Positions 40,561 to 55,250 of a DNA stretch of 64,000 bases are shown here, one piece after another. The notes below the pieces were generated by a model, which worked only from the letters and a program-made list of their open reading frames with translations, did no database searches and was not told where the DNA came from. Made by a program: the position numbers and the translations under genes. The stretch is from Caldimonas brevitalea. Lineage in GTDB: Bacteria > Pseudomonadota > Gammaproteobacteria > Burkholderiales > Burkholderiaceae_C. Where the stretch lies: assembly GCF_001017435.1 (NCBI RefSeq), contig NZ_CP011371.1, positions 186,001-250,000 on the forward strand, read 5' to 3'. The stretch's first letter is position 1. Each line of letters starts with the position of its first letter.

Positions 40561-41238
40561 ATGCAAGAAATTTCTTTCGAACACCGGATCGCCAAACGAT
40601 CCCAGCTTCCGGCCGCCGACGTCGATGCGATGCTCCGCCTGCGGGCACGTGTTTTCCATCAACGCCTCGGCTGGGATGTCGACGTGCGCAACGGCCGCGA
40701 GGAGGACTGGTACGACGCCGTCGACCCGTACTACCTGCTGATGAAAGGCGGTGACCGCCAACTCTACGGCTGCATGCGCTTGCTGCCGACGCTCGGGCCC
40801 AACATGTTGCGCGACGTGTTCCCGACGCTGCTGGGCGGTCGTCCTGCCCCAGCCGATCCCTTCACCTGGGAAATTTCGCGTTTTGCGACGGAGTTCCCGG
40901 CGCCGTCCGCCGACGCGGCGTGCAAGCAACGGCAACAAACGCTGCGTTACGAGGCCATCCGTGCCGCCATGCGCCGGCTGATCGACTTCGCCGACGCGCA
41001 TGGCATCGAACGTTACGTGATGGTCACCACGCCGGTCGTCCAGCGCATGCTCGACCAGCTGCAGGTGCCCGCGACCTGCTATGCCGCGCCGGTGCGCTTC
41101 GGGGTCGACGAGGCGGTCGCGCTGTCGGTGCAGGTGGGCGAGGCCACCCGCCGTGTGCTGGGCTGGTCGCCCTATCACAACGTGCCGGCGCTTGGCTCCG
41201 CCTGCGCAGCAGCCACGGACGTGGTTCCCTGCCTCTGA
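40561..41238 (+). CDS. luxI: LuxI-family acyl-homoserine-lactone synthase
   Basis: A 225-residue autoinducer synthase that joins SAM and an acyl donor to make an acyl-homoserine lactone. The eight invariant residues can be aligned: Arg28, Phe32, Trp38, Asp52, Asp55 and Arg73, then Glu104 and Arg107 in WEISRFAT. Spacing agrees with LuxI/TraI apart from a three-residue insertion before Asp52. It opens the 3-amino-4-hydroxybenzoate-type cluster, 24 bp before the DHQS II homolog, while its probable receptor lies 10 kb away on the other strand. The symbol is generic; acyl chain length cannot be told from sequence. Confidence 0.93.
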   Translation: MQEISFEHRIAKRSQLPAADVDAMLRLRARVFHQRLGWDVDVRNGREEDWYDAVDPYYLLMKGGDRQLYGCMRLLPTLGPNMLRDVFPTLLGGRPAPADPFTWEISRFATEFPAPSADAACKQRQQTLRYEAIRAAMRRLIDFADAHGIERYVMVTTPVVQRMLDQLQVPATCYAAPVRFGVDEAVALSVQVGEATRRVLGWSPYHNVPALGSACAAATDVVPCL

Positions 41239-41262
41239 CCCAGCCGGCCCTCCGCAAACGCC

Positions 41263-42558
41263 ATGGAACAGCTCCTCACCCCACACGTGGCCGCCCCTGA
41301 CGATGGGGGCGTCGTGGGCCAGGCCGGGGTCGTGATGGGCGACACGGCCGCGGCTCGGGGCGCAGCGCGGTCTCCCTTCACCACGGCGGTGCCGGGCACC
41401 CGCGCCGCGGTCATCTGGTATGACTCGCGGGCACTGACCCACGTCTGTGACGAGACGCGCCGCGCGATCGTGCAGCGCCTCGGGCAGGGCGGCTACAACG
41501 GCATCGTGTTGTATCCCGAAGGCCTGAGGGAGCTGGGTGAGGCAGTGTCCCCACGCCTGCAACGCGTGATCCAGGTCGACTCGCTGGCGCTGTGGGCGCA
41601 GCTGTCGGAGCAGATCGCGCCGCACGCGACCCAGGGCCGTATCGAGGCGGGTGTCGTCTCGAGCGGCGACCCGCGCGTGCTGGTGGCCGCAAAGGCGGCC
41701 GGCTTTCGCACCTGCTGGCGCGCGCATGTCGACAACGCACCGAGCCTGAAGGCGTCGTGCCGTGACGGCTTGCACTACGACCACCTGTTGGTGTCGTTCA
41801 AGGACGCCACCAACATTCCGCTCGAACACGTCATCGCCGAGTTGCACGGGACCCGCACGGTGCTGCTCAAAGAGGTACACGAAAACGTCGACGATGCGGT
41901 GATCGCATTGGGCGTGCTCGAACTCGGCAGCGACGGTGTGGCCGTCGGCTTCACGACGATGGCGCAGTTCGATGCGTTCGCTCGAAAGCTCGAGCGCCTG
42001 GCCTCACCGCGGACCGAGTTGCAGGTCGGCGTGACCGATCGCATCACGCACCTGGGCCTGGGCTATCGGGCCTGCATCGACACCACCCACTTGTTCAACG
42101 CCGACGAGGGCATCCTGGTGGGCTCCACCTCGAGCGGCGGCATCCTGTGCTGTCCCGAGGTGTTCCACCTGCCCTACATGGAGCTGCGGCCCTTCCGCAT
42201 CAACGCGGCCTCGGTGCACAGCTACGTGTTCCAGTCTCACAACCGCACCAGCTACATCAGCGAGCTGCGTGCGGGCAGCCAGCTGACGACGGTCAACGCT
42301 CGCGGTGAGACGCGACAGGTCTACGTCGGCCGCGTCAAGACCGAAATCCGGCCCTTGCTGCTGATCGAGGCGACCTTCCCGCAACAGCGCAAGGTCAACA
42401 TCATCATGCAGGACGACTGGCACGTCCGCGTGTTCTCGGACGAGGCCAAACCCCGCAACGTGACCGAGCTGAAGCCGGGCGACCCGGTGCTGGGCTTCGG
42501 CACCGAACCCGGTCGCCACGTCGGCGTGAAGGTCGACGAACACATCATCGAAGTCTGA
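41263..42558 (+). CDS. griH: 3-Dehydroquinate synthase II homolog (GriH-like)
   Basis: A 431-residue protein of the archaeal-type DHQS II family. The diagnostic C-terminal half is intact: RACIDTTHLFNADEGILVG, STSSGGILC (residues 288-296), RPFRINAASVHSYV (309-322), ISELRAGSQL, GRVKTEIRPLLLIEA and ELKPGDPVLGFG. In archaea the family makes dehydroquinate; in Streptomyces, GriH with GriI forms 3-amino-4-hydroxybenzoate. A GriI-like aldolase lies at 48681, which supports the second role. The first 40 residues are not family-like; ATG 41335 is an alternative start. The bacterial chromosome would be expected to have an ordinary aroB elsewhere. Confidence 0.85.
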   Translation: MEQLLTPHVAAPDDGGVVGQAGVVMGDTAAARGAARSPFTTAVPGTRAAVIWYDSRALTHVCDETRRAIVQRLGQGGYNGIVLYPEGLRELGEAVSPRLQRVIQVDSLALWAQLSEQIAPHATQGRIEAGVVSSGDPRVLVAAKAAGFRTCWRAHVDNAPSLKASCRDGLHYDHLLVSFKDATNIPLEHVIAELHGTRTVLLKEVHENVDDAVIALGVLELGSDGVAVGFTTMAQFDAFARKLERLASPRTELQVGVTDRITHLGLGYRACIDTTHLFNADEGILVGSTSSGGILCCPEVFHLPYMELRPFRINAASVHSYVFQSHNRTSYISELRAGSQLTTVNARGETRQVYVGRVKTEIRPLLLIEATFPQQRKVNIIMQDDWHVRVFSDEAKPRNVTELKPGDPVLGFGTEPGRHVGVKVDEHIIEV

Positions 42559-42624
42559 CCCCGTGGGCCGCTGCGGGGGAGGACCGGCCTCTGCAGCGAA
42601 CTGCATTTATTGAGGAGTGAAAAA

Positions 42625-43719
42625 GTGCATCAAGTTTTGATCAGCGGCGTCACCGGCTTCGTGGGCAGTGCCCTGGCAGCCAGTTTCCTCGCCCGTGGCA
42701 TGCGGGTCGCGGCGCTGTCGCGCAACGACCCCGACGGCATGCGGACCGTCAACGCGGTCATCGCGGCGGCGCAGGGACAAGGCCTCGACATCAGCGGCGC
42801 CCTCGAAAGCCATCTGCAAGTGCTCAACGTCGACTTTACCCAGCTCGACAGCACGCTAGAGCCGAGTGCGTTGGCCGACGTCACCGAGGTGTGGCACGTC
42901 GCGGCCGAGATGAGCTATTCGCCGCACAAGCTGGGCCGTTCGTTCGACACCAACGTCGGCAACACCACACGGTTGTACGAGCTGGTGAAGCAACACGCGC
43001 CTGCCTGCCGCCGCTTCTACTACGTCTCGACCGCCTACGTGGCGGGCATGGCGGGCGGCCCGGTGCGTGAGGAGCTGCACGCACGCCCGAGCATGGTCAA
43101 CACCTACCAGGTGACGAAGTGGAGTGCCGAACAGGCGCTGCACCTTGCCTACCTGCGTGAAGGGCTGCCCGTCACGGTGTTCCGGCCCACCGTGGTGGTG
43201 GGGCATCGCCACACCGGCTGGGCTCATCGCAATGGCTTCGGCTTCTACATGTTCCTCGACGCGATGACCGCCATCGCCAAGGCCGGTCACACCGAACTGG
43301 CCGTCGACCTGCTGCCGCAAACCCGGGTCGACCTCGTGTCGATCGACCAGCTGGTCGCCGATGCCGGCACCCTGACGCTGCGACAAGACGCGGGCCGCGA
43401 GCTGGAGGTGTTCCACTGCGGCGGCGGCTTGCGGGTGCCGATGGGCGAGCTGGTGCCGCTGTGGGGTGATGTGGCGGGCCTGCGGGCATCGATCGGCAAA
43501 CCGACCACGGCGCTGGAACAGCAGTTCGACCGCGCCGTGGCGCCGAACCAGCCGTTCGCGCGGACCGAGTGGCATTTCGAGCGGGCCAAGCTCGACGCGG
43601 CCACGCAGCGCTCGGTGCCGGTCACACCGCTGACGGCAGACGAGTTGCGCAGCATGTGTCGCTGGTATGCCGACGCCGCAGCGGTGGTCGAGCAGGACAC
43701 CGTGGCCGCGGCCGGCTGA
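42625..43719 (+). CDS. Extended SDR, thioester-reductase-like
   Basis: A 364-residue extended short-chain dehydrogenase of the thioester-reductase/male-sterility NAD(P)-binding group. The NADP motif is VLISGVTGFVGSALAASFLAR. WHVAAEMSYS, YYVSTAYVAGM and the catalytic Tyr/Lys in NTYQVTKWSAEQAL follow, then VFRPTVVVGHRHTGW. These enzymes reduce acyl thioesters (acyl-CoA or acyl carrier) to aldehydes. With a fatty-acyl-type ligase two genes downstream, it could reduce or modify the acyl chain of the product. I chose GTG 42625, with GAGGAG 8 bases upstream, over TTG 42610. Confidence 0.8.
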   Translation: MHQVLISGVTGFVGSALAASFLARGMRVAALSRNDPDGMRTVNAVIAAAQGQGLDISGALESHLQVLNVDFTQLDSTLEPSALADVTEVWHVAAEMSYSPHKLGRSFDTNVGNTTRLYELVKQHAPACRRFYYVSTAYVAGMAGGPVREELHARPSMVNTYQVTKWSAEQALHLAYLREGLPVTVFRPTVVVGHRHTGWAHRNGFGFYMFLDAMTAIAKAGHTELAVDLLPQTRVDLVSIDQLVADAGTLTLRQDAGRELEVFHCGGGLRVPMGELVPLWGDVAGLRASIGKPTTALEQQFDRAVAPNQPFARTEWHFERAKLDAATQRSVPVTPLTADELRSMCRWYADAAAVVEQDTVAAAG

Positions 43720-43729
43720 GGGGCCAGGC

Positions 43730-45157
43730 GTGGCGTCCCTGACCTCCGCCGGGGTCGCGCGTGCCGCCCCGCCACAGCGCCAGCCGCTCGACGCGCTGGC
43801 GGAGGTTTTCGTGCACCTGGGCCGCCTCGCCAACGTCAACACGAACCAGATCCTGATCGTGTCGGGCCGGCTCGACCCGGCGCTGCTCGAGCAGGCGGTG
43901 CGACGGGCCGTGGGGCAGATCCCGCTGCTGCGCTCGCTGCCGCTGGCGCGCCGGCCCGAGCTGCAAGAGCCCGTTGTGGGCCTGGCGCAGCGTTTCGTCA
44001 CGTGGCGCCAGCACGCCGGCGACTGCCATCTCGCCGACCCTTACCTGCGCCGCCTGTTGATGGACTTCAGCGACGAGCACCGACTCGACTGGCGCGCCCG
44101 CACGCCGCTGCAGCTGCTGCTGGTGACCGGCCGGGATGGCCGCAGTTCCTGCGTCTACCTGAACACCCACCATGGGGTCGCCGACGCGCGCAGCGACTTC
44201 CTGCTGCTGCGCCTCATCATCGACCACTATGCGCAGCTCTCGGGGGTGCCCGGCGCCGTTGCGTCGCGGCAGGTGCTGTCGTTCACGCCGCTGGCCCAGT
44301 TTCGCCCGCAGTGGGGCCGGCTCACGACCAAGGTGGGCCGCTGGTGGCGTGCCGGGCTCAGCATCGCGGCCGACCTGGTGCAGCGCGACATCGGCTTGCA
44401 ACGGCCCTTGCGCGGGCCGCGTTGGGAGGGCCGCTCGGCCGACCCGGCGATCGGGCGGCTCGATTTCTACCACGGCATGGTGCCGCCGCTGACCGCCACG
44501 CGCCTGGCGGCAGCGGCCCGGGCGGTCGGCGTGACCGTGAACACCTTGTGGTGCGCGGCGCTCGCCCGTGCCCTCGAACGCTCGGCGGCGGGCCGGCGCG
44601 GGATGCTGCGCATCACATGCGCCGTGAGCCTGCGGCGCCTGCTCGACGCGCGTTACGACCGCAGCTTTCGCAACTACCTCGTGCCGAGCAACGTGCGCAT
44701 CCCGACCGGGCAGTCCAGCGGCGAGTTGCTGCGGTGCGTACACCAGGCCGTCGAGGCGGCGCGTACCGACACGCGCGTCAGCACCGAGATCGGCCGGCTC
44801 GAAGCCCTGCAGCTGGTGCTGCGGCGTCCCGCCCTGAACGGGCTCGCCCGCACCCTGCTCAACCTGTGCCAGGGCACCAACGCCTGCTACTCCAACCCGG
44901 GCCGCATCGAGGAAGACTTCTCGAACTTCGGATCCACAGCGCATCGTACGCTGCAGTACATCGGCTTCGGCTGCCTGGTGCCGCCCTACGACTTCATCCT
45001 CTACACGCCGACCGTCAACGGGCGCATGCAGATCGACGTCGTGTATCGCTGCGCCGCCTTCCCGGACATCCGGCAAGACCTGGTGACACCGCTGCTGGCC
45101 GCCCTCGACCGGCTGCTCGACGACATTGAGTCTGTTGACCAAGGGGTGACCCCATGA
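43730..45157 (+). CDS. Stand-alone condensation-like acyltransferase
   Basis: A 475-residue protein of the condensation/CoA-dependent acyltransferase superfamily (NRPS C domain, PapA and wax-synthase relatives). The active-site motif is seen as NTHHGVADARS (His147-His148-x3-Asp152); the usual final Gly is Ala. N-terminal LANVNTNQILIVSGRLDPALL and C-terminal LVPPYDFILYTPTVNGRMQIDVVYR fit the fold. It carries no adenylation or carrier domain, so it probably joins an acyl thioester to a free amine or alcohol, such as the amino group of an aminohydroxybenzoate. GTG 43730 follows GAGGGG; ATG 43667 would overlap the previous gene. The next gene overlaps by ATGA. Confidence 0.72.
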   Translation: MASLTSAGVARAAPPQRQPLDALAEVFVHLGRLANVNTNQILIVSGRLDPALLEQAVRRAVGQIPLLRSLPLARRPELQEPVVGLAQRFVTWRQHAGDCHLADPYLRRLLMDFSDEHRLDWRARTPLQLLLVTGRDGRSSCVYLNTHHGVADARSDFLLLRLIIDHYAQLSGVPGAVASRQVLSFTPLAQFRPQWGRLTTKVGRWWRAGLSIAADLVQRDIGLQRPLRGPRWEGRSADPAIGRLDFYHGMVPPLTATRLAAAARAVGVTVNTLWCAALARALERSAAGRRGMLRITCAVSLRRLLDARYDRSFRNYLVPSNVRIPTGQSSGELLRCVHQAVEAARTDTRVSTEIGRLEALQLVLRRPALNGLARTLLNLCQGTNACYSNPGRIEEDFSNFGSTAHRTLQYIGFGCLVPPYDFILYTPTVNGRMQIDVVYRCAAFPDIRQDLVTPLLAALDRLLDDIESVDQGVTP

Positions 45158-46953
45158 CTGCTTTGCTGTTGGTGCCTGTCGCTGTCGTGCTGGCCTACCT
45201 CGTGTTTGCCGTCGTGCGCCTGGGCCTGCCGCGACGGCTCGCACTGCTCGCCTTCTGGAACGGCCGGGTCGAGCACACGCTCGAGGAAGCCGAGCGACGC
45301 CACGGACAACGCACCTTGTTCCAACTGGCCCAGCCGCTTGCCTGGGTCGGCGACCTCACCTGGAGTGCCCGTCGTACCCGTGAAGTCGTCGAGCGCCTGT
45401 CTGCCAGCTGGCACCACCTGGGGGTGCGCAAAGGCGACCGGGTGGCGGTCTACAAGCGCAACGACTTCGACCACTTCCTGTTTTCGCTTGCCGCCGTTCG
45501 GATCGGCGCCATTGCGGTGCCGATGAACGTCAACGTGGCGGGCGAGACCGCCGCGCGTTTCATGGAACGCATGGGCGTGCGCCTGCTGATCACCGACACC
45601 CAAGGCTACCTGCGGGTGCATGCCGATGGTGTCTCGCCGCCACACACCGTGCGGTGGGTGGTGCTGAGCGACGCGCGGGCGCTCGACGGCAACCCGGCCG
45701 GCCCGCTGCGCGTGCACCGCCTGGCCGACCTGCTGAAAAGAGACCTGCCGGCCATGCCGGTATGCCCGCGCGGCGCCGGTGACCCCCTCTACATCGTGCA
45801 CACCTCGGGCACGACCGACCTGCCCAAGGGGGTGATCGTGACGTCCGAGGGCATGGCGCAGTCGCTGCGCTCCTTCGTGCTGTTCAACCCGGTGTCACGC
45901 GCCGACCTGGCGTGCCTGGCCCTGCCGCTCAACCACCAGGTGTCGCACCTCTATCTGCACGGCATCCTGTTGATGGGCCTGCGTTGTATCGTCAACAGCG
46001 AGCTGGCGGCGCCGCGTCTGATCCGGCAGATCGAGGAGCAGCGCCCGACCCTGTTCTTCGCCTTTCCCATCACCTACACCCGGCTGATCGCAGCCGGAGC
46101 GCTCGAGCGGGGGCTCGACAGCGTGCGCATCTGGGGCACCACGGCCGATGCCAGCCACGAGGTGCAGCAGCGGGCCTTCGTGACCCGCGGGTCCTTCTTC
46201 AGACGCCTGGGCATTCCTGTCGCCGGAGCGTTGTTCCTCGACGGACTCGGCTCGAGCGAGGTCGGCATTGCAGCGCTGCTGCGCATCACGACACCGTGGA
46301 CCCGCCGCTTCGGCCGACGCATCGGCCGCCGGGCGCCACTCGGTCCCCGCATCCGCGTTGCCGATGTCGAAGGGCGGCCGGTGCCGCGTGGAGAAGTCGG
46401 CCGCTTGATGATCAAGGGCAAGAGCCTGTTCGGCGGTTACTGGAACGCCCACGACGCGCTCTATGCCACCACCCGCGACGGCTGGTGGTTCACCGGCGAC
46501 CTGGTGCTCGAAGGTGACGACGGCGAGCTGGTGCATCTCGACCACGAGGTCGACGTGATGCACACCGCCACCGGCCCGGTCTATACGTTGCCGATCGAAG
46601 AAGTGGTGCTGAAGCACCCGGGGGTGCTGGACACCTGCGTGTTCGGCGTGCGCCAGGACCCCGAGGGACCTGAGCTGCCCGCGGCGGTGGTCGCGCTGCG
46701 CACCGACGCTGCCCCGGTCGCAGCGTCGGTGCTGCGGCGCACCCTCAACGCGACGCTGGGTGCCGACCAGCAGCTGCGGCATGTGTGGGTGATCGACTGG
46801 GAGGAGTTTCCCATCGGCGCCACGGGCAAGACCCTCAAGCGCAAGCTGCGTGAGCGCTACAACGCACAACTACAAGGCTGGGTTGCCACCTTGGCCGATA
46901 CGCCATGCGAACCCTTACTGTCCCAGGTCGGCGGCAGCCTGCAGCCGGCCTGA
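45154..46953 (+). CDS. Membrane-anchored acyl-CoA synthetase-like enzyme
   Basis: A 599-residue adenylate-forming ligase with an N-terminal hydrophobic anchor (LLLVPVAVVLAYLVFAVVRLGL, residues 4-25). The P-loop is YIVHTSGTTDLPKGVIVT near residue 212; DGLGSSEVGIA is the A5 motif and WWFTGDLVLEGDDGELVH the A7; the catalytic Lys lies in GATGKTLKRKLRERY. Its layout resembles fatty-acyl-CoA synthetases of the FATP/very-long-chain type. In this cluster it probably activates the acyl chain used by the condensation-like enzyme, whose gene it overlaps by 4 bp. Confidence 0.82.
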   Translation: MTALLLVPVAVVLAYLVFAVVRLGLPRRLALLAFWNGRVEHTLEEAERRHGQRTLFQLAQPLAWVGDLTWSARRTREVVERLSASWHHLGVRKGDRVAVYKRNDFDHFLFSLAAVRIGAIAVPMNVNVAGETAARFMERMGVRLLITDTQGYLRVHADGVSPPHTVRWVVLSDARALDGNPAGPLRVHRLADLLKRDLPAMPVCPRGAGDPLYIVHTSGTTDLPKGVIVTSEGMAQSLRSFVLFNPVSRADLACLALPLNHQVSHLYLHGILLMGLRCIVNSELAAPRLIRQIEEQRPTLFFAFPITYTRLIAAGALERGLDSVRIWGTTADASHEVQQRAFVTRGSFFRRLGIPVAGALFLDGLGSSEVGIAALLRITTPWTRRFGRRIGRRAPLGPRIRVADVEGRPVPRGEVGRLMIKGKSLFGGYWNAHDALYATTRDGWWFTGDLVLEGDDGELVHLDHEVDVMHTATGPVYTLPIEEVVLKHPGVLDTCVFGVRQDPEGPELPAAVVALRTDAAPVAASVLRRTLNATLGADQQLRHVWVIDWEEFPIGATGKTLKRKLRERYNAQLQGWVATLADTPCEPLLSQVGGSLQPA

Positions 46954-47138: not shown

Positions 47139-47873
47139 ATGAACCTGATTGAATTCGTCTCGGTCCGTAAGTCGTATTGGCTCGGCGAGACCGAAGTGAC
47201 GGCGCTCGACGGTGTCGACTTCACCGTGCAGCGCGGCGACTTCGTGGCCATCACCGGGCCGAGCGGCAGCGGCAAGACGACCATGCTCAACCTCCTCGGA
47301 TGCCTCGACACACCGAGTGCCGGCGAGGTGCGGGTGCTGGGTCAGGCGGTCAGTTCGCTGGACGAGCGAGAACTCGACCAGCTGCGCAGCCGCAGCGTGG
47401 GGCTGGTCCTGCAGCCCTTCGACCTGGTGCCGGTGCTCACCGCCTTCGAGAACGTCGCCTTGCCGCTGCACCTGCACCGTCTGTCGCGCACGCAGATGCA
47501 GCAGCGCACCCAGGAAGCCTTGCGCTCGGTCGGCCTGGAACGGCATGCGGGCTTTCGGCCCGACCAGCTGTCGGGCGGCCAACGCCAGCGGGTCGCGTTT
47601 GCGCGGGCGCTGGTAACCCGGCCCGATCTGATCCTCGCCGACGAGCCGACGGCCAGGTTGGACAGCACCAACGCGCTGGCGCTGGTCGAACTGATGAAGC
47701 AGCTCAACGCCCAAAGCGGCGTGACCTTCGTGTTCTCGACCCACGACGACCGCCTGCTGCGACACGTGACGCGCATCGTGGACCTGCGCGACGGCAAGCT
47801 GTCGGTGACGCGCGGCGCGCGGCCCGACGACGGCGTTGCCTCGGGGCGGTACCGCCTGCTGGAGGTGGTGTGA
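47139..47873 (+). CDS. ABC transporter ATP-binding protein (MacB/LolD type)
   Basis: A 244-residue ATPase. Walker A is GPSGSGKTTMLNLLGCLDTPSAGEV, the signature LSGGQRQRVAFARALV, Walker B LILADEPTARLDSTNA and the switch His in FVFSTHDDRLL. This MacB/LolD-like form usually drives FtsX-type permeases, and one follows directly, its ATG sharing the last base of this stop. The pair probably exports or mechanotransmits the cluster product. No periplasmic adaptor gene is present. Confidence 0.88.
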   Translation: MNLIEFVSVRKSYWLGETEVTALDGVDFTVQRGDFVAITGPSGSGKTTMLNLLGCLDTPSAGEVRVLGQAVSSLDERELDQLRSRSVGLVLQPFDLVPVLTAFENVALPLHLHRLSRTQMQQRTQEALRSVGLERHAGFRPDQLSGGQRQRVAFARALVTRPDLILADEPTARLDSTNALALVELMKQLNAQSGVTFVFSTHDDRLLRHVTRIVDLRDGKLSVTRGARPDDGVASGRYRLLEVV

Positions 47874-48664
47874 TGTGGCCGGTCGCTCTCCGCAACCTCT
47901 GTCGCGACCGGCGCCGCACGCTGGCCACCACGATGGCCTTGGCCGTGTGGCTGCTCGCGATGCTGCTGCTCCTGGGCTACATGCGCTTCTTCGAGGGTGC
48001 GCTGGCGGACGCGGTGACCGACCGAGACGCCCATGCGCATTGCATAAAGTTGTTCCAGGCCGGGTTTGCCTTCACCGGCGTGCTGGTGTTCGTGATCGCC
48101 TCGACCATCGTCCGGCACGCGGTGGCGATGAATGTCTTCGACCGGGTGCGCGAGATCGGCATGTTGCGCGCCATGGGCTTCAGTCGCCACGCCATTGCCG
48201 GCCTGTTCGTCAAAGAGAGCCTGCTGACGACGTTGATGGCCGCACTCCTCGCCATGGCATCGGGCTACCTCGTGACCTGCGCAATCGGCTATGCCGGCCT
48301 GCGCATCCAGCTGCCATGGCGTGCCGAGCCGGTGACGGTGGCTCTCGATCTGCCGCTGCCGTGGGCGCTGGGCAGCGTCACGCTGGTGATGCTGGGCATC
48401 GCCGCGGTCGCGTGTGCCACGGCGCGGCGCCGTGTCGGGGCCGCGGTGCGCGCCGCGCGCGGCGCTGCGCCGTTGACGCGCTTGCTGTCGGCGGTCGCGT
48501 GGATGCTGATGGGCACCGCGGTGACGGCGGTGCAGGCCGACGAGACCAGCGTCGCGCACCACAACGCCACGCTGCATGCTGCGCAAGGCGAATGCCTCGC
48601 GGCGCACCCCCTGCGTGCCACCGGCAGCCCCTCCGAGCGCTCGTGCTCGGTTCTGTTGATCTGA
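47873..48664 (+). CDS. FtsX-type permease lacking the periplasmic domain
   Basis: A 263-residue membrane protein with four segments: LATTMALAVWLLAMLLLLGYM, AGFAFTGVLVFVIASTIVRHA, a third around LLTTLMAALLAMASGYLV and a fourth around SVTLVMLGIAAVACATA. FtsX hallmarks are clear: MNVFDRVREIGMLRAMGFSR and FVKESLL. In LolC/MacB-like permeases about 200 periplasmic residues separate segments 1 and 2; here only about 25 remain. The C-terminus carries an odd extra part with a hydrophobic stretch and two Cys (GTAVTAVQADETS...GECLAAHP). It is read with the preceding ATPase. Confidence 0.78.
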   Translation: MWPVALRNLCRDRRRTLATTMALAVWLLAMLLLLGYMRFFEGALADAVTDRDAHAHCIKLFQAGFAFTGVLVFVIASTIVRHAVAMNVFDRVREIGMLRAMGFSRHAIAGLFVKESLLTTLMAALLAMASGYLVTCAIGYAGLRIQLPWRAEPVTVALDLPLPWALGSVTLVMLGIAAVACATARRRVGAAVRAARGAAPLTRLLSAVAWMLMGTAVTAVQADETSVAHHNATLHAAQGECLAAHPLRATGSPSERSCSVLLI

Positions 48665-48680
48665 AACCGGGGACCGACAC

Positions 48681-49493
48681 ATGACCGAAATGGCACGCAA
48701 GAGGCGCTGGGAGCGCTTCGTGGACCGCGCGTCGGGCAAGGCGCTGATCGTTCCGATGGACCATGGCCTCACGTTCGGGCCCATTCCCGGGCTCAACCGC
48801 ACCGACGACGTGTTGCGCTGGCTGACGCCCGAGGTGGTGACCGGCGTGGTGCTGCACAAGGGTTACGCCGAGCGCCTCGGTGGTGTGCCGGGCTGCGGCC
48901 TGATGATCCACCTCAACGGCGCGCTGGGCTGGGGCGATACGCCGGATGTGAAGCACCGGGTCACCAGCGTCGAGGCGGCGTTACGCCTGGGCGCCGACGC
49001 CGTCTCGGTGCAAACCGATTTCTTGCCGGCGACCGCTTCGCACAACCTGCGCCTGGTCGGCGAGGTGGTCGACGAAGCGCACGCCTATGGTGTGCCGGTG
49101 CTGGCCATGGTCTACGACAAGTCGCCGGTCGTCGAAGGGGCTTTGGGCCGGCTGCGCCATGTCATGCGGGCGATGGTCGAGCTGGGCATCGATGTGCTCA
49201 AGGTGACCGCGCCAGCCGACCTGTCGAACATTCCCGAGCTGATCGACGGCATCCAGCCGCACACTCCAGTGCTGTTCGCCGGCGGTGCGCTGGTCGAAGA
49301 GCAAGCGCTGATGGAGTTGGGCAGTGCGGTGGTGCGCTACGGCGCCGGCGGCATGTGCGTCGGGCGCAACGTATTCCAGCGCGCCAACCCGCGCGCCACG
49401 ATGGAACGTTTGCTGCAACTGTTGCGCGCCGGCATGCCCGCGCTCGACTTCAAGCGGCTCGCGTCGATCGGCCCGGCGGAAATGGTCCGCTGA
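48681..49493 (+). CDS. griI: DhnA-type class I aldolase (GriI / ADH synthase-like)
   Basis: A 270-residue TIM-barrel aldolase of the DhnA/2-amino-3,7-dideoxyheptulosonate synthase family. Features: ALIVPMDHGLTFGPIPGL near residue 21, VLAMVYDKSPVVEG (the family's Tyr is Tyr145), the Schiff-base Lys174 in DVLKVTAPAD, and PVLFAGGALVEE. GriI condenses aspartate semialdehyde with dihydroxyacetone phosphate; its C7 product is cyclised by GriH to 3-amino-4-hydroxybenzoate. Archaeal homologs have Y-P-R-G where this one has Y-D-K-S. The matching griH-like gene lies 6 kb upstream in the same orientation. Confidence 0.83.
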   Translation: MTEMARKRRWERFVDRASGKALIVPMDHGLTFGPIPGLNRTDDVLRWLTPEVVTGVVLHKGYAERLGGVPGCGLMIHLNGALGWGDTPDVKHRVTSVEAALRLGADAVSVQTDFLPATASHNLRLVGEVVDEAHAYGVPVLAMVYDKSPVVEGALGRLRHVMRAMVELGIDVLKVTAPADLSNIPELIDGIQPHTPVLFAGGALVEEQALMELGSAVVRYGAGGMCVGRNVFQRANPRATMERLLQLLRAGMPALDFKRLASIGPAEMVR

Positions 49494-49548: not shown

Positions 49549-51090
49549 ATGCATCTCGACCCGAGTCCCGGCTGTGTCGACCTGCTGGTCGACCGCCATG
49601 TGCGTGCCGGCCTGGCCGGCCGGGTGGCGCTGATCGAGGGCGGTGCCAGCGGCCGGCGCACCGTGCGCTACGGCGAACTGCAGCGGCTGAGCGTGGCGGC
49701 CGCGCGGGAACTCGACATCCGCCTGGCCGGCAGCCGCCGCCAGCAGCGTGTGGCCCTGGTGGGGTCGGCCACACTGGAAACGGTGGTGTACTGGTTGGGC
49801 GCCATGCGGGCGGGCCATCTGCCCTTCTTGGTTCATCCCGATCTCCCGGCGTCGCAATACGACATGTTGTGGCGCGATTTCGACCCGCGGCTGGTGCTTG
49901 CCGACCGCACCTCTCGGGTCGCGGCCGCCGAGCCGATGACCCCGGTGGAGCAGTTGGCGGACGGCGCGCAACCGACCTCCCCCCACTTGCCGGTGAGCGA
50001 CCTCGCGGCCAGCTTCGACCTGCGCCCGGCTTTGGTGTTGGCAACGTCGGGCTCGACCGGGCGGCTCAAGCTGTGTGTCCATGCCCACCGCTCGTTCTGG
50101 GAGTTCGAGCGCACGGTGACACGCCGGATGTGGGGCATCACCCGAGAAGATCGGGTGCTGGCGAGCATCGGCCCGTTTTTCTCGTTCGGCCTGCAAGGTC
50201 TGCATGCGCCGCTCAGTGTTGGCGCCACCGCGGTGATGGTGCCCCAGTGGCAGCAGCACACCGAATTTCTCGACGCCATCGAAGCCGAGGCCGTCAGCGT
50301 GTTCCTGGCGGTGCCGACGCTTTATCACCTGCTCACGGTACGCGCGCGGCGCCCCTATCGTTTCGACGCGCTGCGGCTCGCCATGTCGGCCGGCGAACGT
50401 TTGCCGCCGGTGGTGCGTCAGCGCTGGGAAGGCTGGTCGGGTACCCGCATGCTCGACTCGATCGGCGCCACCGAAACCTTCGCGCCCTATTTGTCCGAGA
50501 CCGTTTTCGGGCCGCCCGGCCTGCAGCCAGTGGACGGCTTCCGCTACACCGAGATGCCGCATGCGGCAAGTGAAGACGTACCTTCCGGCACCTTTGCGCT
50601 CGGACTGCGCGAAGGATGCTTGATGCTGGGCTACCTCGACGCCGACGTGCCGGGCTCGATCGCGTCGCCGCCCACGCTGTTCGAGACGGGGGACCTGTTC
50701 GTGCGCGACGCGGCCGGCCTACGCTTCGTTTCGCGCGACAGCGAGCGCATCAAGGTGGCCGGCCATTGGGTCAGCCCGCAGGAGCTCGAAGCCTTCCTGT
50801 TGACCGACAAGCGTGTGCTGAAAGCGGCCGCGGTGCCCATCACCACGCCCGAAGGTCTGACACGGCTGCGAGCCTATCTGGTCACGGCGGGGGGCTGCGA
50901 GGACACGACGGTGGCTCACGACCTGATGAAGCGCATGCAACAGGAGCTGCACCCCAAGGCCTTGCGCCCCGATCGGATCGAATTCGTGGCCGACATCGCG
51001 ACCACGCCGAGCGGCAAGCTCAAGCGGCAGGAACTGGTGCACCTGATGCGGCAGGCCCCGTCCTCATCCGGCGTGCTGCTGGCGGGCTAG
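49549..51090 (+). CDS. Aryl/benzoate-CoA-ligase-like adenylating enzyme
   Basis: A 513-residue soluble adenylate-forming ligase. The P-loop is LATSGSTGRLKLCVHAH (residues 164-180), followed by SIGPFFSFGLQGLHAPLSVG, MLDSIGATETFAPY, DLFVRDAAGLRFVSRDSERIK and the catalytic Lys in TPSGKLKRQEL. The pattern is closer to benzoate- and hydroxybenzoate-CoA ligases than to fatty acid ligases. It could activate the carboxylate of the aminohydroxybenzoate made by the griH/griI pair. The start is ATG 49549 (GTG 49546 also possible) after AGAGAGG. It is the last gene of the plus-strand run. Confidence 0.82.
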   Translation: MHLDPSPGCVDLLVDRHVRAGLAGRVALIEGGASGRRTVRYGELQRLSVAAARELDIRLAGSRRQQRVALVGSATLETVVYWLGAMRAGHLPFLVHPDLPASQYDMLWRDFDPRLVLADRTSRVAAAEPMTPVEQLADGAQPTSPHLPVSDLAASFDLRPALVLATSGSTGRLKLCVHAHRSFWEFERTVTRRMWGITREDRVLASIGPFFSFGLQGLHAPLSVGATAVMVPQWQQHTEFLDAIEAEAVSVFLAVPTLYHLLTVRARRPYRFDALRLAMSAGERLPPVVRQRWEGWSGTRMLDSIGATETFAPYLSETVFGPPGLQPVDGFRYTEMPHAASEDVPSGTFALGLREGCLMLGYLDADVPGSIASPPTLFETGDLFVRDAAGLRFVSRDSERIKVAGHWVSPQELEAFLLTDKRVLKAAAVPITTPEGLTRLRAYLVTAGGCEDTTVAHDLMKRMQQELHPKALRPDRIEFVADIATTPSGKLKRQELVHLMRQAPSSSGVLLAG

Positions 51091-51177: not shown

Positions 51178-51915
51178 TCAGACATGGATCAGGCCCAGCG
51201 ACAACGCGCGGGCCACGGCCTGGCGTCGGTTGGAGGCGCTCAACTTCTGGATCACGTTGCGCAGATGGAAGTTCACGGTGGCTTCCGAGCAGCTGAGGAT
51301 CTGCGAGGTCTCCCAGGAGGTCTTGCCTGCCGCCGCCCAGCGCAGGCATTCGCGCTCGCGCTCGGTCAGGTTCACCACCGGCGCCTCGCTGCCCCCCGAC
51401 TCTTGCGTGCGGCACAAGGCCTCGTAGGCATAAGCGGCCAGCAGGTGCACCGAGGGGGTCACAGCGGACAACCAAGCTTCGGTCTTGGAGTCGACATGCG
51501 CATCGCAGGCGACCGACATCATCATCTTCTGGCCGCTGTTGATGCCACGCAGTGCGGAGGCCACGCCGGTGGCGACGCCGTAGGCGGACGACTCCTCGAA
51601 CAGGTGCCGCGTCTGGGTTTCCTGAAAACGCTCCCGGTGCCATACCAGTGGCACCGGGGAGCTGGCGCAGTGCCGTATGACAGGGTCGTGGTGCCACCAC
51701 TGCGCGCGGTGGTATCGCTCGATCCAGGCCTCGGGGTAGGTGGTGGTGATGAGGTGCTCGGGGTCGGAACCGACCGCTGGTGCGTGCACCAGGATCAAGA
51801 ACGAATCGAATCCCATCGCGCCGATGTAGCGTTGGCAAAGCTCCTTCACCTGGTCGGTGCTGCCCGCGGTCAACAGGTCGGGCAGTACCCGGAGGACCTG
51901 TTCCTGAGATTGCAT
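51178..51915 (-). CDS. luxR: LuxR-family quorum-sensing regulator
   Basis: A 245-residue LuxR-type receptor. The autoinducer-binding domain keeps Trp64, Tyr68, Asp77, Pro78 and Trp92, equivalent to TraR Trp57, Tyr61, Asp70, Pro71 and Trp85 with the same spacing. The C-terminal GerE helix-turn-helix is LTERERECLRWAAAGKTSWE and EATVNFHLRNVIQKL. A near-perfect SD (AGGAGG) precedes ATG 51915. It is convergent with the biosynthetic operon and divergent from the diiron oxidase gene. It is the likely partner of the luxI product and may control both flanks. Confidence 0.92.
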   Translation of the reverse strand: MQSQEQVLRVLPDLLTAGSTDQVKELCQRYIGAMGFDSFLILVHAPAVGSDPEHLITTTYPEAWIERYHRAQWWHHDPVIRHCASSPVPLVWHRERFQETQTRHLFEESSAYGVATGVASALRGINSGQKMMMSVACDAHVDSKTEAWLSAVTPSVHLLAAYAYEALCRTQESGGSEAPVVNLTERERECLRWAAAGKTSWETSQILSCSEATVNFHLRNVIQKLSASNRRQAVARALSLGLIHV

Positions 51916-51974
51916 TGCAAGCCTCCTGTGAGTGCAGATGCGCTCGTGTCTGTCGCTGGAGTCATGAGGAGACC

Positions 51975-51988
51975 GACAGGTCCCTGTC
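51975..51988. promoter_or_regulatory. Dyad between luxR and the diiron oxidase gene
   Basis: GACAGG-TC-CCTGTC is a perfect 14-base dyad 60 bases upstream of luxR. It has lux-box-like half-site letters, but with the halves in inverted order compared with the classical lux box. It is a candidate binding site for LuxR or another regulator. Confidence 0.35.
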
Positions 51989-52183
51989 AATTGATGAAGA
52001 TATCCGACCCTACTCCCGGCTTGCTACTGTCGGTCTTACGGGGATATGCGTCAAACGGCGGTAAAGGTTGCATGAAACGGCGTGGCACTGCAACACGCCG
52101 TAAAGGGGGGGTCTACCAGGCACGACGTTTTCATTTCTGCCGCCCGCAAGGGCCCGATCTTTGATCCTCACCCGGAGTCATCC

Positions 52184-52891
52184 ATGAACCTGCAAATCGA
52201 AACCCTCGAAGCGACCAAGCTCGCATTGATCGAGCGGACACGCAAACATTCCTTTCTTGCACGCTGCCGAGCCGGCACCGTGACGCTGGACGAACTGAAG
52301 CTGATGCTGGTCCAGCAGGGCCTCTACAGCACCTACTTCACGCGCTACCTCTGCGCGATGATGGCCAATCTGCCCAGCAACCAGGAGGTGCTGGCGCTGG
52401 CGGAAAACCTGTTCGAGGAGCTCGGGCTGGCGCCTGACAGCCCGCGTCCGCACTATTTGATCTATCGCGACATGCTCGAGCACTTCGGCCTCACGCTCGA
52501 GAGAGCGCGTCCCTTGCCGGGCACACGCCAGCTGATCGACGCGATGTTCGCCAACTGCCGCGACCCCAACCCGGCCCGCGGCCTGGGGGCCCTGTGCCTT
52601 GGCGCCGAGGCCCTGGTGCCAGCGGTTTATTCGGACATCCTTGCGGGCTTCTCGGCGTGCGGTGCCCAACCGGAAGAACTGGAGTTCTTCCGCATCCATG
52701 TCGAGTGCGACGACGGCCATGCCGAGACCATCCGCGACATCATGGTGCAGCTCGCCGCCGGCGACAATGACCAGATCGACCAGATGCTCGAAGCTGGACG
52801 TCATCTGGTCGACGCCCGGCTCGCCTTCTTCAGCTCGATCGAGACCGCCCACCACCTGGCTTGGGTGGCGGCAGAGCCTGAGGCGGCATGA
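52184..52891 (+). CDS. Heme-oxygenase-like diiron oxidase (CADD/PqqC fold)
   Basis: A 235-residue all-helical protein of the HDO (iron-containing redox enzyme) family. The six metal ligands can be assigned: Glu78 or Glu79, His90, Glu142 (CLGAEALVPAVY), and His172, Asp176, His179 in FFRIHVECDDGHAETI. The last trio has the same spacing as His174/Asp178/His181 of Chlamydia CADD, and Glu142 has the same number. HDO enzymes include N-oxygenases (SznF, RohS) and CADD, a p-aminobenzoate synthase. Here the likely substrate is the aminohydroxybenzoate or its derivative. It is divergent from luxR. A CGGCGTG/CACGCCG hairpin (52078-52100) lies in its leader. Confidence 0.83.
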   Translation: MNLQIETLEATKLALIERTRKHSFLARCRAGTVTLDELKLMLVQQGLYSTYFTRYLCAMMANLPSNQEVLALAENLFEELGLAPDSPRPHYLIYRDMLEHFGLTLERARPLPGTRQLIDAMFANCRDPNPARGLGALCLGAEALVPAVYSDILAGFSACGAQPEELEFFRIHVECDDGHAETIRDIMVQLAAGDNDQIDQMLEAGRHLVDARLAFFSSIETAHHLAWVAAEPEAA

Positions 52892-52897
52892 AGGTGA

Positions 52898-53083
52898 GTC
52901 AATGAGCGTCGCACGGCCGCCCGAAGACGCTCGCACCGGAGTGCGCAGCACGGAGGTTGGTCAATCAGCGTCGCACGGCCGCCCGAAGACGCTCGCACCG
53001 GAGTGCGCAGCACGGAGGTTGGTCAATCAGCGTCGCACGGCCGCCCGAAGACGCTCGCACCGGAGTGCGCAGCACGGAGGTTG
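52898..53083 (+). repeat. Three tandem 62 bp direct repeats
   Basis: Three head-to-tail copies with a 62-base period start at 52898, 52960 and 53022. The copies are identical except for a few bases at the outer edges. Each holds two possible hairpins, CGCAC-CGGA-GTGCG and AGCGTC...GACGCT, and a GGAGGTTGGTC that looks like a ribosome-binding site. As 62 is not a multiple of 3, a reading frame through them changes frame each copy. The repeat fills the gap between the diiron oxidase stop and the class II aldolase start. Confidence 0.95.
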
Positions 53084-53087
53084 GTCC

Positions 53088-53183
53088 ATGACTGTGCAGC
53101 AATCACCAAGGGCGGCTTGCCCGCCTTGCAACCGGACCGCCCTGATGGCGGGCCCGAGGGAATGCCGATGGCAGACACACTGA
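53088..53183 (+). CDS. Possible 31-residue small protein
   Basis: ATG 53088 lies 8 bases after GGAGG at the end of the third 62 bp repeat. It opens a 31-codon frame: MTVQQSPRAACPPCNRTALM, then AGPRECRWQTH. It has a CPPC motif and overlaps the start of the aldolase-family gene. It may be a leader peptide coupling translation to that gene. Evidence is limited to the start signal and position. Confidence 0.25.
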   Translation: MTVQQSPRAACPPCNRTALMAGPRECRWQTH

Positions 53184-53962
53184 CGATGCAAAAAGACGAA
53201 CTGATCGAACGGGCCAAAGCGCAGATGCAGCAGCATCTGACAGCGCCGACGTGGTCGCTGCGGGAGAAAGTGGCGCTCACCTGTCGCATCCTGTTCGCGC
53301 AAGGCCACGACTCCGGGTTGGCCGGGCAGATCACCGCCCGCGCCGAGGTGCCCGGTCACTACTACACACAGCGACTCGGGCTGGGCTTCGACGAGATCAC
53401 CGCGTCCAATCTGCTGCTGGTCGACGAAGACCTGCAGGTGCTCGAAGGCGACGGCATGGCCAACCCGGCCAACCGCTTCCACAGCTGGATCTACCGTGCA
53501 CGGCCGGACGTGCGGTGTATCGTCCACACCCACCCGCTGCACATCAGTGCGTTGTCGATGCTCGAGAGGCCCCTGCAGGTGTCGCACATGGACACCTGCG
53601 TGCTGTTCGACGACATCGCCTTCCTCGCGCGTTGGCCGGGGGTGCCGGTGGGCAACAGCGAAGGCGAGATCATCTCGGGCGTGCTGGGCGACAAACGTGC
53701 GGCCTTGCTGGCCCACCATGGCCTGGTGGTGGCCTGCACCTCGGTCGAAGAAGCCTGTTTGCTCGCAATTCAATGTGAACGTGCTGCTCGCCTGCAGTTG
53801 CTGGCCGAGGCCGCCGGCACGGTGCAGCCCCTCGACCCGGAGCTGGCGCGCGAGGCGCACGACTGGGTGCTCCAGGAGAAACGCTCGCAGGCCGGCTTTG
53901 CCTACCATGCACGCCGCATCCTGCGCGAAACACCGGGTGGTGTCGAACATCCGCTGTCCTAG
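53168..53962 (+). CDS. Class II aldolase/adducin-family protein
   Basis: A 264-residue protein of the zinc-dependent class II aldolase/adducin fold. The metal site is visible as IVHTHPLHISALSML (three His) with a later His in ALLAHHGLVVA. The acidic SWIYRARPDV region and a typical N-terminal helix (REKVALTCRILFAQGHDSG) are present. The family includes sugar-phosphate aldolases, aromatic-acid decarboxylases and CloR-like oxygenases, so here it may act on an aromatic intermediate. ATG 53168 has GAGGGA 7 bases upstream; ATG 53162 is an alternative. It is probably cotranscribed with the diiron oxidase across the repeats. Confidence 0.8.
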   Translation: MADTLTMQKDELIERAKAQMQQHLTAPTWSLREKVALTCRILFAQGHDSGLAGQITARAEVPGHYYTQRLGLGFDEITASNLLLVDEDLQVLEGDGMANPANRFHSWIYRARPDVRCIVHTHPLHISALSMLERPLQVSHMDTCVLFDDIAFLARWPGVPVGNSEGEIISGVLGDKRAALLAHHGLVVACTSVEEACLLAIQCERAARLQLLAEAAGTVQPLDPELAREAHDWVLQEKRSQAGFAYHARRILRETPGGVEHPLS

Positions 53963-53988
53963 GATATGCGCCGGTGACGCAGCGGCAC

Positions 53989-54021
53989 ACGTGTGTGCGC
54001 GATGACATCGCGCACACACGT
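53989..54021. repeat. 33 bp perfect palindrome
   Basis: ACGTGTGTGCGCGATG and its exact reverse complement flank a single central A. It lies 26 bases after the aldolase-family stop. No T-run follows. It could be a transcription stop acting as a long hairpin, or a protein binding site. Confidence 0.85.
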
Positions 54022-54137
54022 CTCGCCCGGGTACCAGCCTTGCTCAAGGTTGCAAGCGCGCCTTGCATGGGTCACGTCGGGCACGATCGAGACAAGTGGG
54101 TGCGCAACGTGAACCCCTTGATCGAGGAGAGACAGGC

Positions 54138-55250
54138 ATGCGGGTGCACCGCGTTGTAGAGAGGCTCGAGGCGCTGGTGGCGCACACGGCCATGCGCTTG
54201 CCGGCGTCGCTGCTGTCGCGCCTGGCCGGCGAACCGGTGGTGGTGGACGGGCAGGCGCTCAACCCCCAGGTGCAGCTGATGTTGAAGCTGCGCACGCTGG
54301 GGGGCAAGAAGCCGTGGAGCGAGTTGTCGGTGGACAAGGCCCGGCGGCAATTCGAAGGCGAGGGCAACATGCTGGCACCGCGGCCTTCGCAGCCGGTGTC
54401 GTCATCCGATCTGCAGCTCGACACGGCGACCGGGCCGATGCGGGTGCGGCGGTACCGCCCGGCGACCTTGTCCGGGTCGGCACCCGCCCCGACGCTGGTG
54501 TACTACCACGGCGGCGGTTTTGTGCTGGGCTCGCTCGACTCTTATGACGGTGTGTGCCGATGCCTGGCCGCGGCAGCGCCGGTGCAGGTGCTCTCGGTGG
54601 ACTACCGGCTGGCGCCTGAACATCGTTTTCCGGCGGCCGTCGACGATTCGGTGGCCGCGCTGCGCGCCATTGCCGAGCAGGCGGCGGCACTGGGCGTCGA
54701 TCCGCAGCGCCTGGCCGTCGGCGGCGACAGTGCCGGGGCCAACCTTGCCACGGTGGTGGCGCTTGACACGCGGGGCGATGCGGTGCGGCCGAGCTTCCAG
54801 CTGCTGTGCTACCCCGTGGTGGACAACCAGATGCATTCGCCGTCGATCCTGCGCTACGCCCAGGGGTTCTTCCTGGAGCGACCGTCGATGGACTGGTGCA
54901 TCGACCACTACGCGCCGCGCGCCCAGCGCGGGGACAACCGCATGTCCCCGCTGCACGACGACTTGCGCGGCTCACCGCCGGCGTTCATCCAGATCGCTGG
55001 CTTCGATCCTTTGCGCGACGAGGGCGAGGCCTATGCCGCCAAGCTGCAGCAATCCGGGACGCCGGCGACGCTGCGCTGCTACCCGGGGCTGATCCATGGT
55101 TTTCTGAACCTCGCCGGTGGGGTGGACGAGGCGCGTGAGGCTTTCGAGGAGGCGGTGGAGGCGCTGCGGGTGGGGCTGAGCGCCGCGGCGTTCGCGGCCT
55201 CCACACCTGCGCCGTCGGATGTAAGGGCGGTTGCCTCGTCTCGCCGCTGA
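54138..55250 (+). CDS. Alpha/beta hydrolase, HSL (hormone-sensitive lipase) family
   Basis: A 370-residue carboxylesterase/lipase. The oxyanion-hole motif is YYHGGGFVLGS, the nucleophile elbow AVGGDSAGANLA, and the remaining triad residues lie in IAGFDPLRDEGEAY (Asp) and PGLIHGFLNLAG (His). No signal peptide is seen; the first 90 residues form a helical cap. It could cleave or tailor an ester or amide in the cluster, or be unrelated. A GAGGAGAGA site precedes ATG 54138. It is separated from the aldolase-family gene by the 33 bp palindrome. Confidence 0.87.
   Translation: MRVHRVVERLEALVAHTAMRLPASLLSRLAGEPVVVDGQALNPQVQLMLKLRTLGGKKPWSELSVDKARRQFEGEGNMLAPRPSQPVSSSDLQLDTATGPMRVRRYRPATLSGSAPAPTLVYYHGGGFVLGSLDSYDGVCRCLAAAAPVQVLSVDYRLAPEHRFPAAVDDSVAALRAIAEQAAALGVDPQRLAVGGDSAGANLATVVALDTRGDAVRPSFQLLCYPVVDNQMHSPSILRYAQGFFLERPSMDWCIDHYAPRAQRGDNRMSPLHDDLRGSPPAFIQIAGFDPLRDEGEAYAAKLQQSGTPATLRCYPGLIHGFLNLAGGVDEAREAFEEAVEALRVGLSAAAFAASTPAPSDVRAVASSRR

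What the first reader, a model, noticed from the sequence alone, without database searches (positions are those of the whole stretch)
40561..55250. Quorum-sensing-flanked cluster for a 3-amino-4-hydroxybenzoate-derived metabolite
Seen: a LuxI synthase opens a run containing a DHQS II homolog, a thioester-reductase-like SDR, a condensation-like enzyme, two adenylating ligases, an ABC exporter pair and a DhnA-type aldolase. A LuxR gene follows on the other strand, then a diiron oxidase, a class II aldolase-family gene and a hydrolase. Known: GriI/GriH-type pairs make 3-amino-4-hydroxybenzoate in Streptomyces. Inference: the cluster makes an acylated and/or N-oxidised aminohydroxybenzoate, possibly a benzoxazole-like product, under acyl-homoserine-lactone control. 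I do not recall this gene set in a betaproteobacterium.
Basis: partly seen in the sequence, partly recalled or inferred. Interest (0 to 1): 0.88.

Follow-up and report, generated by a model that had tools for sequence, protein, structure and literature searches.

The report
Quorum-linked aminohydroxybenzoate ester gene cluster
A soil bacterium used as a laboratory host carries a set of genes that probably makes a fat-soluble ester of an unusual aromatic building block, shared with several distant bacteria, but its own copy has lost most of the export machinery beside it.

Summary
The genome's size (6,476,147 bp) equals that published for Schlegelella (Caldimonas) brevitalea DSM 7029. The DHQS-II protein groups with bacterial AHBA-synthase-like proteins, apart from 30 archaeal dehydroquinate synthases (100/100), and the genome has its own aroB. 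The same core block occurs in 16 of the 57 DHQS loci fetched (Chromobacterium, Paludibacterium, Microbulbifer, Pseudomonas, Paraburkholderia, Cupriavidus, two MAGs); LuxR (11 of 16), diiron oxidase (11), class II aldolase-like protein (9) and LuxI (5) are accessories. All 16 hold a full Lol-like exporter; the window copy keeps the ATPase and a remnant of one permease. Most likely product: a lipophilic alkyl ester of 3-amino-4-hydroxybenzoate, perhaps oxidised at nitrogen; Microbulbifer yields esters of this type (bulbiferates, parabens). Acyl-HSL control is supported by LuxI/LuxR profiles and a lux-box-like site shared with four Chromobacterium loci. Product, ester versus amide, and the roles of oxidase and aldolase-like protein are inference. 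New variant of a known kind.

The parts
40348..40363 (+). lux-box-like element CTAACAGAAATGATAG, 213 bp upstream of the luxI start
   Evidence: Same pattern 144-157 bp upstream of luxI frames in Chromobacterium loci L003, L005, L013 and in L004; not in Paludibacterium L006. Only exact match in the genome, but the backwards control pattern matched more often at up to 1 mismatch (18 against 3), and in the window at up to 2 mismatches 20 of 100 shuffles reach the count. The pattern was read from these sequences, so exact matches are by construction; shared position is the evidence.
40561..41238 (+). luxI, acyl-homoserine-lactone synthase
   Evidence: PF00765 97 bits, cut-off 24; best solved relative LasI 1ro5, E 4.5e-31. 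A recalled residue pattern that I tried did not match.
41263..42558 (+). DHQS II family protein, proposed 3-amino-4-hydroxybenzoate synthase (GriH role)
   Evidence: PF01959 291 bits; NCBIfam BagC_FevH 241 bits, below its cut-off of 750; tree places it away from 30 archaeal DHQS
42610..43719 (+). free-standing acyl-thioester reductase-like SDR
   Evidence: PF07993 E 2.3e-26; GxxGxxG and YxxxK motifs
43667..45157 (+). free-standing condensation/PapA-superfamily acyltransferase (the protein collection starts it 21 codons later)
45154..46953 (+). AMP-forming ligase 1, hydrophobic N-terminus, long-chain acyl-CoA ligase-like
   Evidence: PF00501 170 bits; best solved relative FadD 9xb8; NCBIfam tie between acyl-CoA ligase (199 bits) and a diazotase model (197 bits), both far below cut-off
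47139..47873 (+). ABC ATPase, LolD/MacB type
   Evidence: Walker A, signature and Walker B motifs; NCBIfam LolD 225 bits, below its cut-off of 308
47873..48664 (+). remnant of the FtsX1-LolA permease (263 aa; 664 aa in Chromobacterium haemolyticum)
   Evidence: Aligns to residues 2-57 and 271-428 of the Chromobacterium protein only
48681..49493 (+). DhnA-type aldolase, proposed GriI role
   Evidence: PF01791 82 bits; 67-71% to DhnA of Chromobacteriaceae and Microbulbifer clusters
49549..51090 (+). AMP-forming ligase 2, benzoate-CoA-ligase-like; proposed AHBA-activating enzyme
   Evidence: TIGR02262 191 bits (cut-off 375); best solved relative benzoate-CoA ligase 2v7b; in 16 of 16 related clusters
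51178..51990 (-). luxR, acyl-HSL-binding regulator
   Evidence: PF03472 94 bits + GerE 71 bits; in 11 of 16 related clusters
52184..52891 (+). [quoted passage not shown]
53168..53962 (+). class II aldolase/NovR-superfamily protein
   Evidence: NCBIfam PRK07090 443 bits, cut-off 261; solved relatives 8ix6, NovR 9ryg, TqaM 9m09
54063..55250 (+). hormone-sensitive-lipase-type esterase; accessory, edge of cluster
   Evidence: PF07859 249 bits; HGGG and GDSAG motifs; in the fetched stretch of 4 of 16 relatives

Best explanation
A biosynthetic cluster for a lipophilic ester of 3-amino-4-hydroxybenzoate (3,4-AHBA) under acyl-HSL control. Steps: (1) the DhnA-type aldolase and DHQS-II protein make 3,4-AHBA from aspartate semialdehyde and DHAP, as the Streptomyces pair does [supported by the DHQS tree and a separate aroB; chemistry inferred]; (2) ligase 2 activates the AHBA carboxylate [inferred from benzoate-CoA-ligase kinship]; (3) ligase 1 makes a fatty acyl-CoA and the SDR reduces it to the aldehyde or alcohol [inferred]; (4) the free-standing condensation enzyme joins the aryl donor and the fatty alcohol into an alkyl ester [fold and active-site motif shown; reaction inferred]; (5) the diiron oxidase, with the class II aldolase-like protein, tailors the AHBA part, most likely at the amine [family and conserved ligand pattern shown; reaction inferred]; (6) in relatives a Lol-like exporter carries the lipid-like product out [cargo inferred]. 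In this strain that exporter is broken at this locus, so the product would stay in the cell, leave another way, or no longer be made. LuxI/LuxR set the timing [inferred].
For: DHQS tree and separate aroB. DhnA in the fetched stretch of 52 of 57 DHQS loci. Core block in 16 of the 57, across six named genera and two MAGs. Condensation fold with HHxxxD. LolA-like domain and two FtsX permeases in relatives suggest a lipid-like cargo. Microbulbifer is the source of bulbiferates (3-acetamido-4-hydroxybenzoate esters) and alkyl parabens; the four Microbulbifer loci fetched, by their DHQS, all hold the cluster, and a strain recorded as A4B17 has the DHQS and HDO. luxI, luxR and a shared lux-box-like site.
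Against: No call measures a product. No gene of the cluster matches an N-acetyltransferase family. Sequence does not decide ester against amide. DhnA scores higher against 2-amino-3,7-dideoxyheptulosonate-synthase models (184 and 160 bits) than against BagB/FevI (102 bits), and the two actinobacterial rows fall outside its set in the DhnA tree. 24 of 30 archaeal DHQS loci also have DhnA, so pairing alone does not prove AHBA. HDO is absent from 5 of 16 core clusters. The broken exporter could mean that the pathway is decaying here.
Confidence: 0.5

Rival explanations
1. N-acyl route: ligase 1 makes a fatty acyl-CoA, the condensation enzyme N-acylates AHBA (or AHBA-CoA), and the SDR reduces the ligase-2-activated carboxyl to aldehyde or alcohol. 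The o-acylaminophenol may close to a benzoxazole.
For: Uses the same enzymes; the condensation superfamily holds amide-forming NRPS domains as well as acyltransferases such as PapA5 (their reactions recalled). The SDR matches thioester-reductase domains.
Against: No cyclase for a benzoxazole was recognised among the cluster's domains; the Microbulbifer metabolites of this ring type are carboxyl esters, although bulbiferates also carry an N-acetyl group.
Confidence: 0.25
2. Decaying relic (can be true together with any product): in DSM 7029 the loss of exporter parts has left the cluster non-functional or unexpressed.
For: Presumed OM protein, LolA-like domain, FtsX2 and about 210 aa of FtsX1 are missing here but present in 16 of 16 relatives.
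Against: The biosynthetic frames are open, and the motifs tested in SDR, condensation enzyme, both ligases, ATPase, HDO and esterase are present; the lux-box-like site is there. An exporter copy elsewhere in the genome was not looked for.
Confidence: 0.3
3. Diazo product: ligase 1 is a diazotase that turns the AHBA amine into a diazo group.
For: Second-best NCBIfam match is 3-aminoavenalumate diazotase AvaA6, 197 bits, next to the best (199 bits, acyl-CoA ligase subfamily).
Against: 197 bits is far below that model's cut-off of 975; no nitrite-forming gene pair was recognised among the cluster's domains; the hydrophobic N-terminus suits a lipid ligase.
Confidence: 0.05
4. DHQS II and DhnA serve ordinary aromatic amino acid synthesis.
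For: Family names; archaeal homologues with the same pairing in 24 of 30 loci.
Against: Tree split 100/100 from 30 archaeal enzymes; aroB over its cut-off elsewhere in the genome; DHQS embedded in this operon and not found in the 99 other relatives searched.
Confidence: 0.03

Closest known systems
Bagremycin/ferroverdin (bag/fev) cluster, Streptomyces
   Same: 3,4-AHBA made by a BagB/FevI + BagC/FevH pair and joined by its carboxyl to an alcohol; a nitroso form of the aromatic part is also made (PMC6692506, passages read).
   Different: There the alcohol is p-vinylphenol, joined by a ligase-family enzyme FevW, and copper oxidase FevF is proposed for the nitroso step. Here: reductase-like SDR, free-standing condensation enzyme, diiron HDO, Lol-like exporter genes, LuxI/LuxR.
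Grixazone (gri) and nitrosobenzamide (nsp) clusters, Streptomyces
   Same: GriI/GriH- and NspI/NspH-type AHBA synthesis (passages).
   Different: In the passages read: copper oxidases, copper chaperones and SARP regulators, and no counterpart of FevW; none of the lipid or exporter genes seen here is mentioned.
Bulbiferates and parabens of Microbulbifer
   Same: Alkyl esters of 4-hydroxybenzoate, with or without a 3-acetamido group, from a genus of which several genomes carry the whole cluster (PMC11285056 section 14).
   Different: No gene cluster is given for them in what I read; the link is by genus and chemistry only.
HDO enzymes CADD (pABA synthase), HrmI and RohS (N-oxygenases)
   Same: Same fold; the 3-His/3-carboxylate ligand set described for CADD is matched.
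   Different: 15-22% identity in the structural alignments; that none of them acts on AHBA is recalled, not searched.

Membership tests
3,4-AHBA synthase (GriH/FevH type DHQS II) | Groups with bacterial AHBA-type proteins, not archaeal DHQS | tested here: met
   89-row tree: 30 archaeal rows form one side at 100/100; the window lies with the 59 other rows, incl. Streptomyces L057 and Glycomyces L056. Those two rows are not themselves characterised AHBA synthases as far as any call shows.
3,4-AHBA synthase (GriH/FevH type DHQS II) | Over the NCBIfam BagC_FevH cut-off | tested here: not met
   241 bits, cut-off 750: not a BagC/FevH orthologue by that model; I call it AHBA-synthase-like only.
3,4-AHBA synthase (GriH/FevH type DHQS II) | Makes 3,4-AHBA | not testable with these tools
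   Needs an enzyme assay
GriI-type aldolase | DhnA-family aldolase in one cluster with the DHQS II gene | tested here: met
   52 of 57 loci in the fetched stretch; but also 24 of 30 archaeal loci, so not diagnostic
GriI-type aldolase | Groups with the actinobacterial rows (L056, L057) | tested here: not met
   A 47-row set without archaea (88/96) holds the window but not L056/L057; BagB_FevI 102 bits, cut-off 500
LuxI acyl-HSL synthase | PF00765 over cut-off | tested here: met
   97 bits, cut-off 24; LasI best solved relative
LuxR acyl-HSL receptor | Autoinducer-binding plus GerE domain | tested here: met
   94 and 71 bits
HDO (heme-oxygenase-like dimetal oxidase) | Fold and six metal ligands | tested here: met
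HDO N-oxygenase | Oxidises an amine nitrogen | not testable with these tools
   Needs assay
Condensation/PapA superfamily | Fold and HHxxxD motif | tested here: met
Lol/MacB-type exporter | ATPase plus complete permease | tested here: not met
   Permease truncated and second permease missing at this locus

The most novel reading that the evidence does not exclude
The diiron HDO, with its class II aldolase-like partner, replaces the copper oxidase of the Streptomyces pathways (NspF/FevF): proteobacteria make quorum-controlled, lipid-tailed nitrosophenol (or nitro/hydroxylamino) AHBA metabolites that bind metal, a membrane-targeted counterpart of ferroverdin, and HDO fused to AMP-ligases in other AHBA-type clusters does the same job.
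Probability: 0.2. Interest if true: 0.82.

Novelty: new variant of a known kind. Interest (0 to 1): 0.62.

Why it matters
It outlines a cluster family, shared by beta- and gammaproteobacteria and one deltaproteobacterial MAG, that joins a Streptomyces-type aromatic precursor pathway to what looks like a fatty-alcohol ester route, a Lol-like exporter and quorum sensing. It gives a concrete, testable candidate for the genes behind Microbulbifer bulbiferates and parabens, suggests a new chemistry for HDO enzymes (AHBA oxidation), and sits in a strain with published recombineering tools (PMC8302735), so the tests are practical.

Tried and rejected
Shikimate role of DHQS II/DhnA: rejected. LuxI as an AHBA N-acyltransferase: considered; not the first choice because 11 of 16 clusters lack it and its profile and LasI kinship are normal. 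Search for near-perfect palindromes: none upstream of luxI or between luxR and HDO in the window (129 such matches elsewhere in the window). A CT-N12-AG filter also gave nothing at those two places in the window; it found the site in four Chromobacterium loci and unrelated sequences in L078 and L109. The window site was then seen by eye against the Chromobacterium sequence and tested; the control (backwards pattern, 9 + 9 matches against 2 + 1) shows no enrichment. HDO survey of drawn genomes at E 1e-30: 1 of 274 and 1 of 369, each only the centre genome; the two draws overlap. Photorhabdus benzisoxazole cluster as the product of AHBA-HDO clusters: the word dehydroquinate does not occur in that paper's main text (PMC11481567, passages). 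The closest solved relatives of the class II aldolase-like protein (8ix6, 8il8, 8iqa) are named only 'Aldolase', so they gave no reaction.

Literature: searches were seen in full (0, 7, 5 and 0 papers); of 24, 38, 89, 94, 104 and 105 only the top of the listing (20 of 1,963; 15 of 97; 12 of 6,284; 10 of 186; 5 of 7; 15 of 18). Nothing seen there describes this cluster in proteobacteria; this covers only that open-licence library. Papers: PMC11285056 (passages and section 14), PMC6692506, PMC10587159, PMC11481567 and PMC13108848 (passages), PMC8302735 (passages and section 7).
Full report
Where it is. The window is part of a single-contig genome of 6,476,147 bp, the exact size given for wild-type Schlegelella brevitalea DSM 7029 in PMC8302735, Table 1 (section 7 read); NCBI places Caldimonas brevitalea in Sphaerotilaceae, Burkholderiales (that the two names are one species is recalled). 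Identity rests on this size match. If the coordinates agree, the region (226,561-241,250) is in none of the deletions listed in that table.

The genes. All genes of the finding are present, most with third-position G+C typical of coding frames. Order: luxI, DHQS II, SDR, condensation enzyme, ligase 1, ABC ATPase, permease remnant, DhnA, ligase 2, luxR (opposite strand), HDO, class II aldolase-like, esterase; then an rlmL-type and an rpoN gene on the minus strand. The motifs tested are present in SDR, condensation enzyme, both ligases, ATPase, HDO and esterase; a recalled LuxI pattern did not match, and DHQS, DhnA and LuxR were not tested that way.

AHBA rather than shikimate. The DHQS II protein has its best curated matches to a bacterial DHQS II subfamily (294 bits) and BagC/FevH (241 bits), both below cut-off; archaeal-type models score 221 or less. 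In an 89-row tree the 30 archaeal enzymes used (of 41 matches in 40 genomes) form one side at 100/100, and the window lies with the other rows, in a 12-row set with Chromobacterium, Paludibacterium, Microbulbifer and Pseudomonas (100/100). The genome has an aroB (389 bits, cut-off 305). DhnA is in the fetched stretch of 52 of 57 DHQS loci (profile built partly from the same loci). Against: 24 of 30 archaeal loci show the same pairing, and DhnA itself is not tied to GriI by tree or model. The DHQS was found in 1 of 100 genomes, the window's own; 8 of 8 other genomes of its genus lack it, which suggests acquisition (inference).

A conserved cluster family. One scan of one genome per species, through two short peptide patterns, gave 57 loci, so the census is not complete. 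Sixteen of them have the SDR and condensation genes beside DHQS; these 16 also have ligase 1, the presumed OM protein, ABC, FtsX1-LolA, FtsX2, DhnA and ligase 2, each in 16 of 16: five Chromobacteriaceae, four Microbulbifer, one Pseudomonas, one gammaproteobacterial MAG, two Paraburkholderia, two Cupriavidus, one deltaproteobacterial MAG. Accessories: luxR 11 of 16, HDO 11, class II aldolase-like 9, luxI 5, esterase 4. No LuxI-family match was found anywhere in the four Microbulbifer, the Pseudomonas or the gammaproteobacterial MAG genomes (7 of 16 genomes have one), so their LuxR looks like a solo.

The exporter. In Chromobacterium haemolyticum the permease is an FtsX-LolA-like fusion of 664 aa followed by a second FtsX permease and preceded by a Pfam-silent protein with, by eye, a signal-peptide-like start, which I presume to be an outer-membrane protein. 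LolA-like domains suggest a lipid-like cargo. In the window only residues matching 2-57 and 271-428 of the fusion remain, in one open frame of 263 aa; the OM protein and LolA-like domain have no match, and FtsX2 only cross-matches the FtsX1 remnant (E 1e-4). A relocated copy elsewhere in the genome was not looked for.

Quorum control. LuxI and LuxR match their families. A 16-bp lux-box-like sequence 213 bp upstream of luxI recurs upstream of luxI in four Chromobacterium loci, not in Paludibacterium. It is the only exact match in the genome, but the control pattern matched 18 times at up to one mismatch against 3 for the pattern, and in the window 2 matches (one site, both strands) stand against 0.83 expected, reached by 20 of 100 shuffles. 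Shared position, not statistics, carries the argument.

Product. Ester versus amide is undecided by sequence. I favour the ester because a fatty-acyl ligase plus reductase can give an alcohol, enzymes of this superfamily include ester formers (recalled), and Microbulbifer produces alkyl esters of 4-hydroxybenzoate and of its 3-acetamido derivative (PMC11285056 section 14); a strain recorded as A4B17 has DHQS and HDO of this family, and is presumably the paraben producer A4B-17. In Streptomyces, bagremycin and the ferroverdin monomer likewise join 3,4-AHBA or its nitroso form to p-vinylphenol (PMC6692506, passages). No product was measured.

Noticed in passing
L108:3171-10234 (Paludibacterium purpuratum, G103 contig C14): A second, divergent AHBA-type cluster: DHQS (34%), DhnA (33%), a NAD(P)-binding protein, an MFS transporter, an AMP-ligase-HDO frame (801 aa) and the class II aldolase-like gene (70%).
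   Followed up: partly
L033:9704-17773; long HDO frames also in L019, L020, L022, L028, L032, L038, L040, L053: Burkholderia, Photorhabdus, Pseudomonas and Trinickia loci with DHQS, DhnA and an HDO frame of 808-1050 aa; in L033 Pfam shows HDO + AMP-ligase, followed by a methyltransferase, an aromatic-ring hydroxylase and a cupin protein. Product not known to me.
   Followed up: partly
L014:6908-15639 (Pseudoduganella rivuli): AMP-ligase, MFS transporter, DHQS, DhnA, a protein with a weak AMP-ligase match, a PLP enzyme, HDO and class II aldolase-like gene in a row.
   Followed up: partly
L117 and L118 (Euryarchaeota MAG, G759): The MAG holds a DHQS of 462 bits that groups with archaea and a second of 332 bits, apparently the L050 gene, that groups with bacterial rows; contamination not excluded.
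   Followed up: no
Own genome G000:C1:129695-130201 (L093): A second luxI-family gene (96 bits) outside the window.
   Followed up: no
Own genome G000:C1:694575-694590 (L115): Lux-box-like site CTATCAGTTTTGATAG, palindromic by eye; possible further target of a LuxR protein.
   Followed up: no
window 37576-39246: AMP-binding ligase (329 bits) upstream of the cluster; not part of the block compared here.
   Followed up: no
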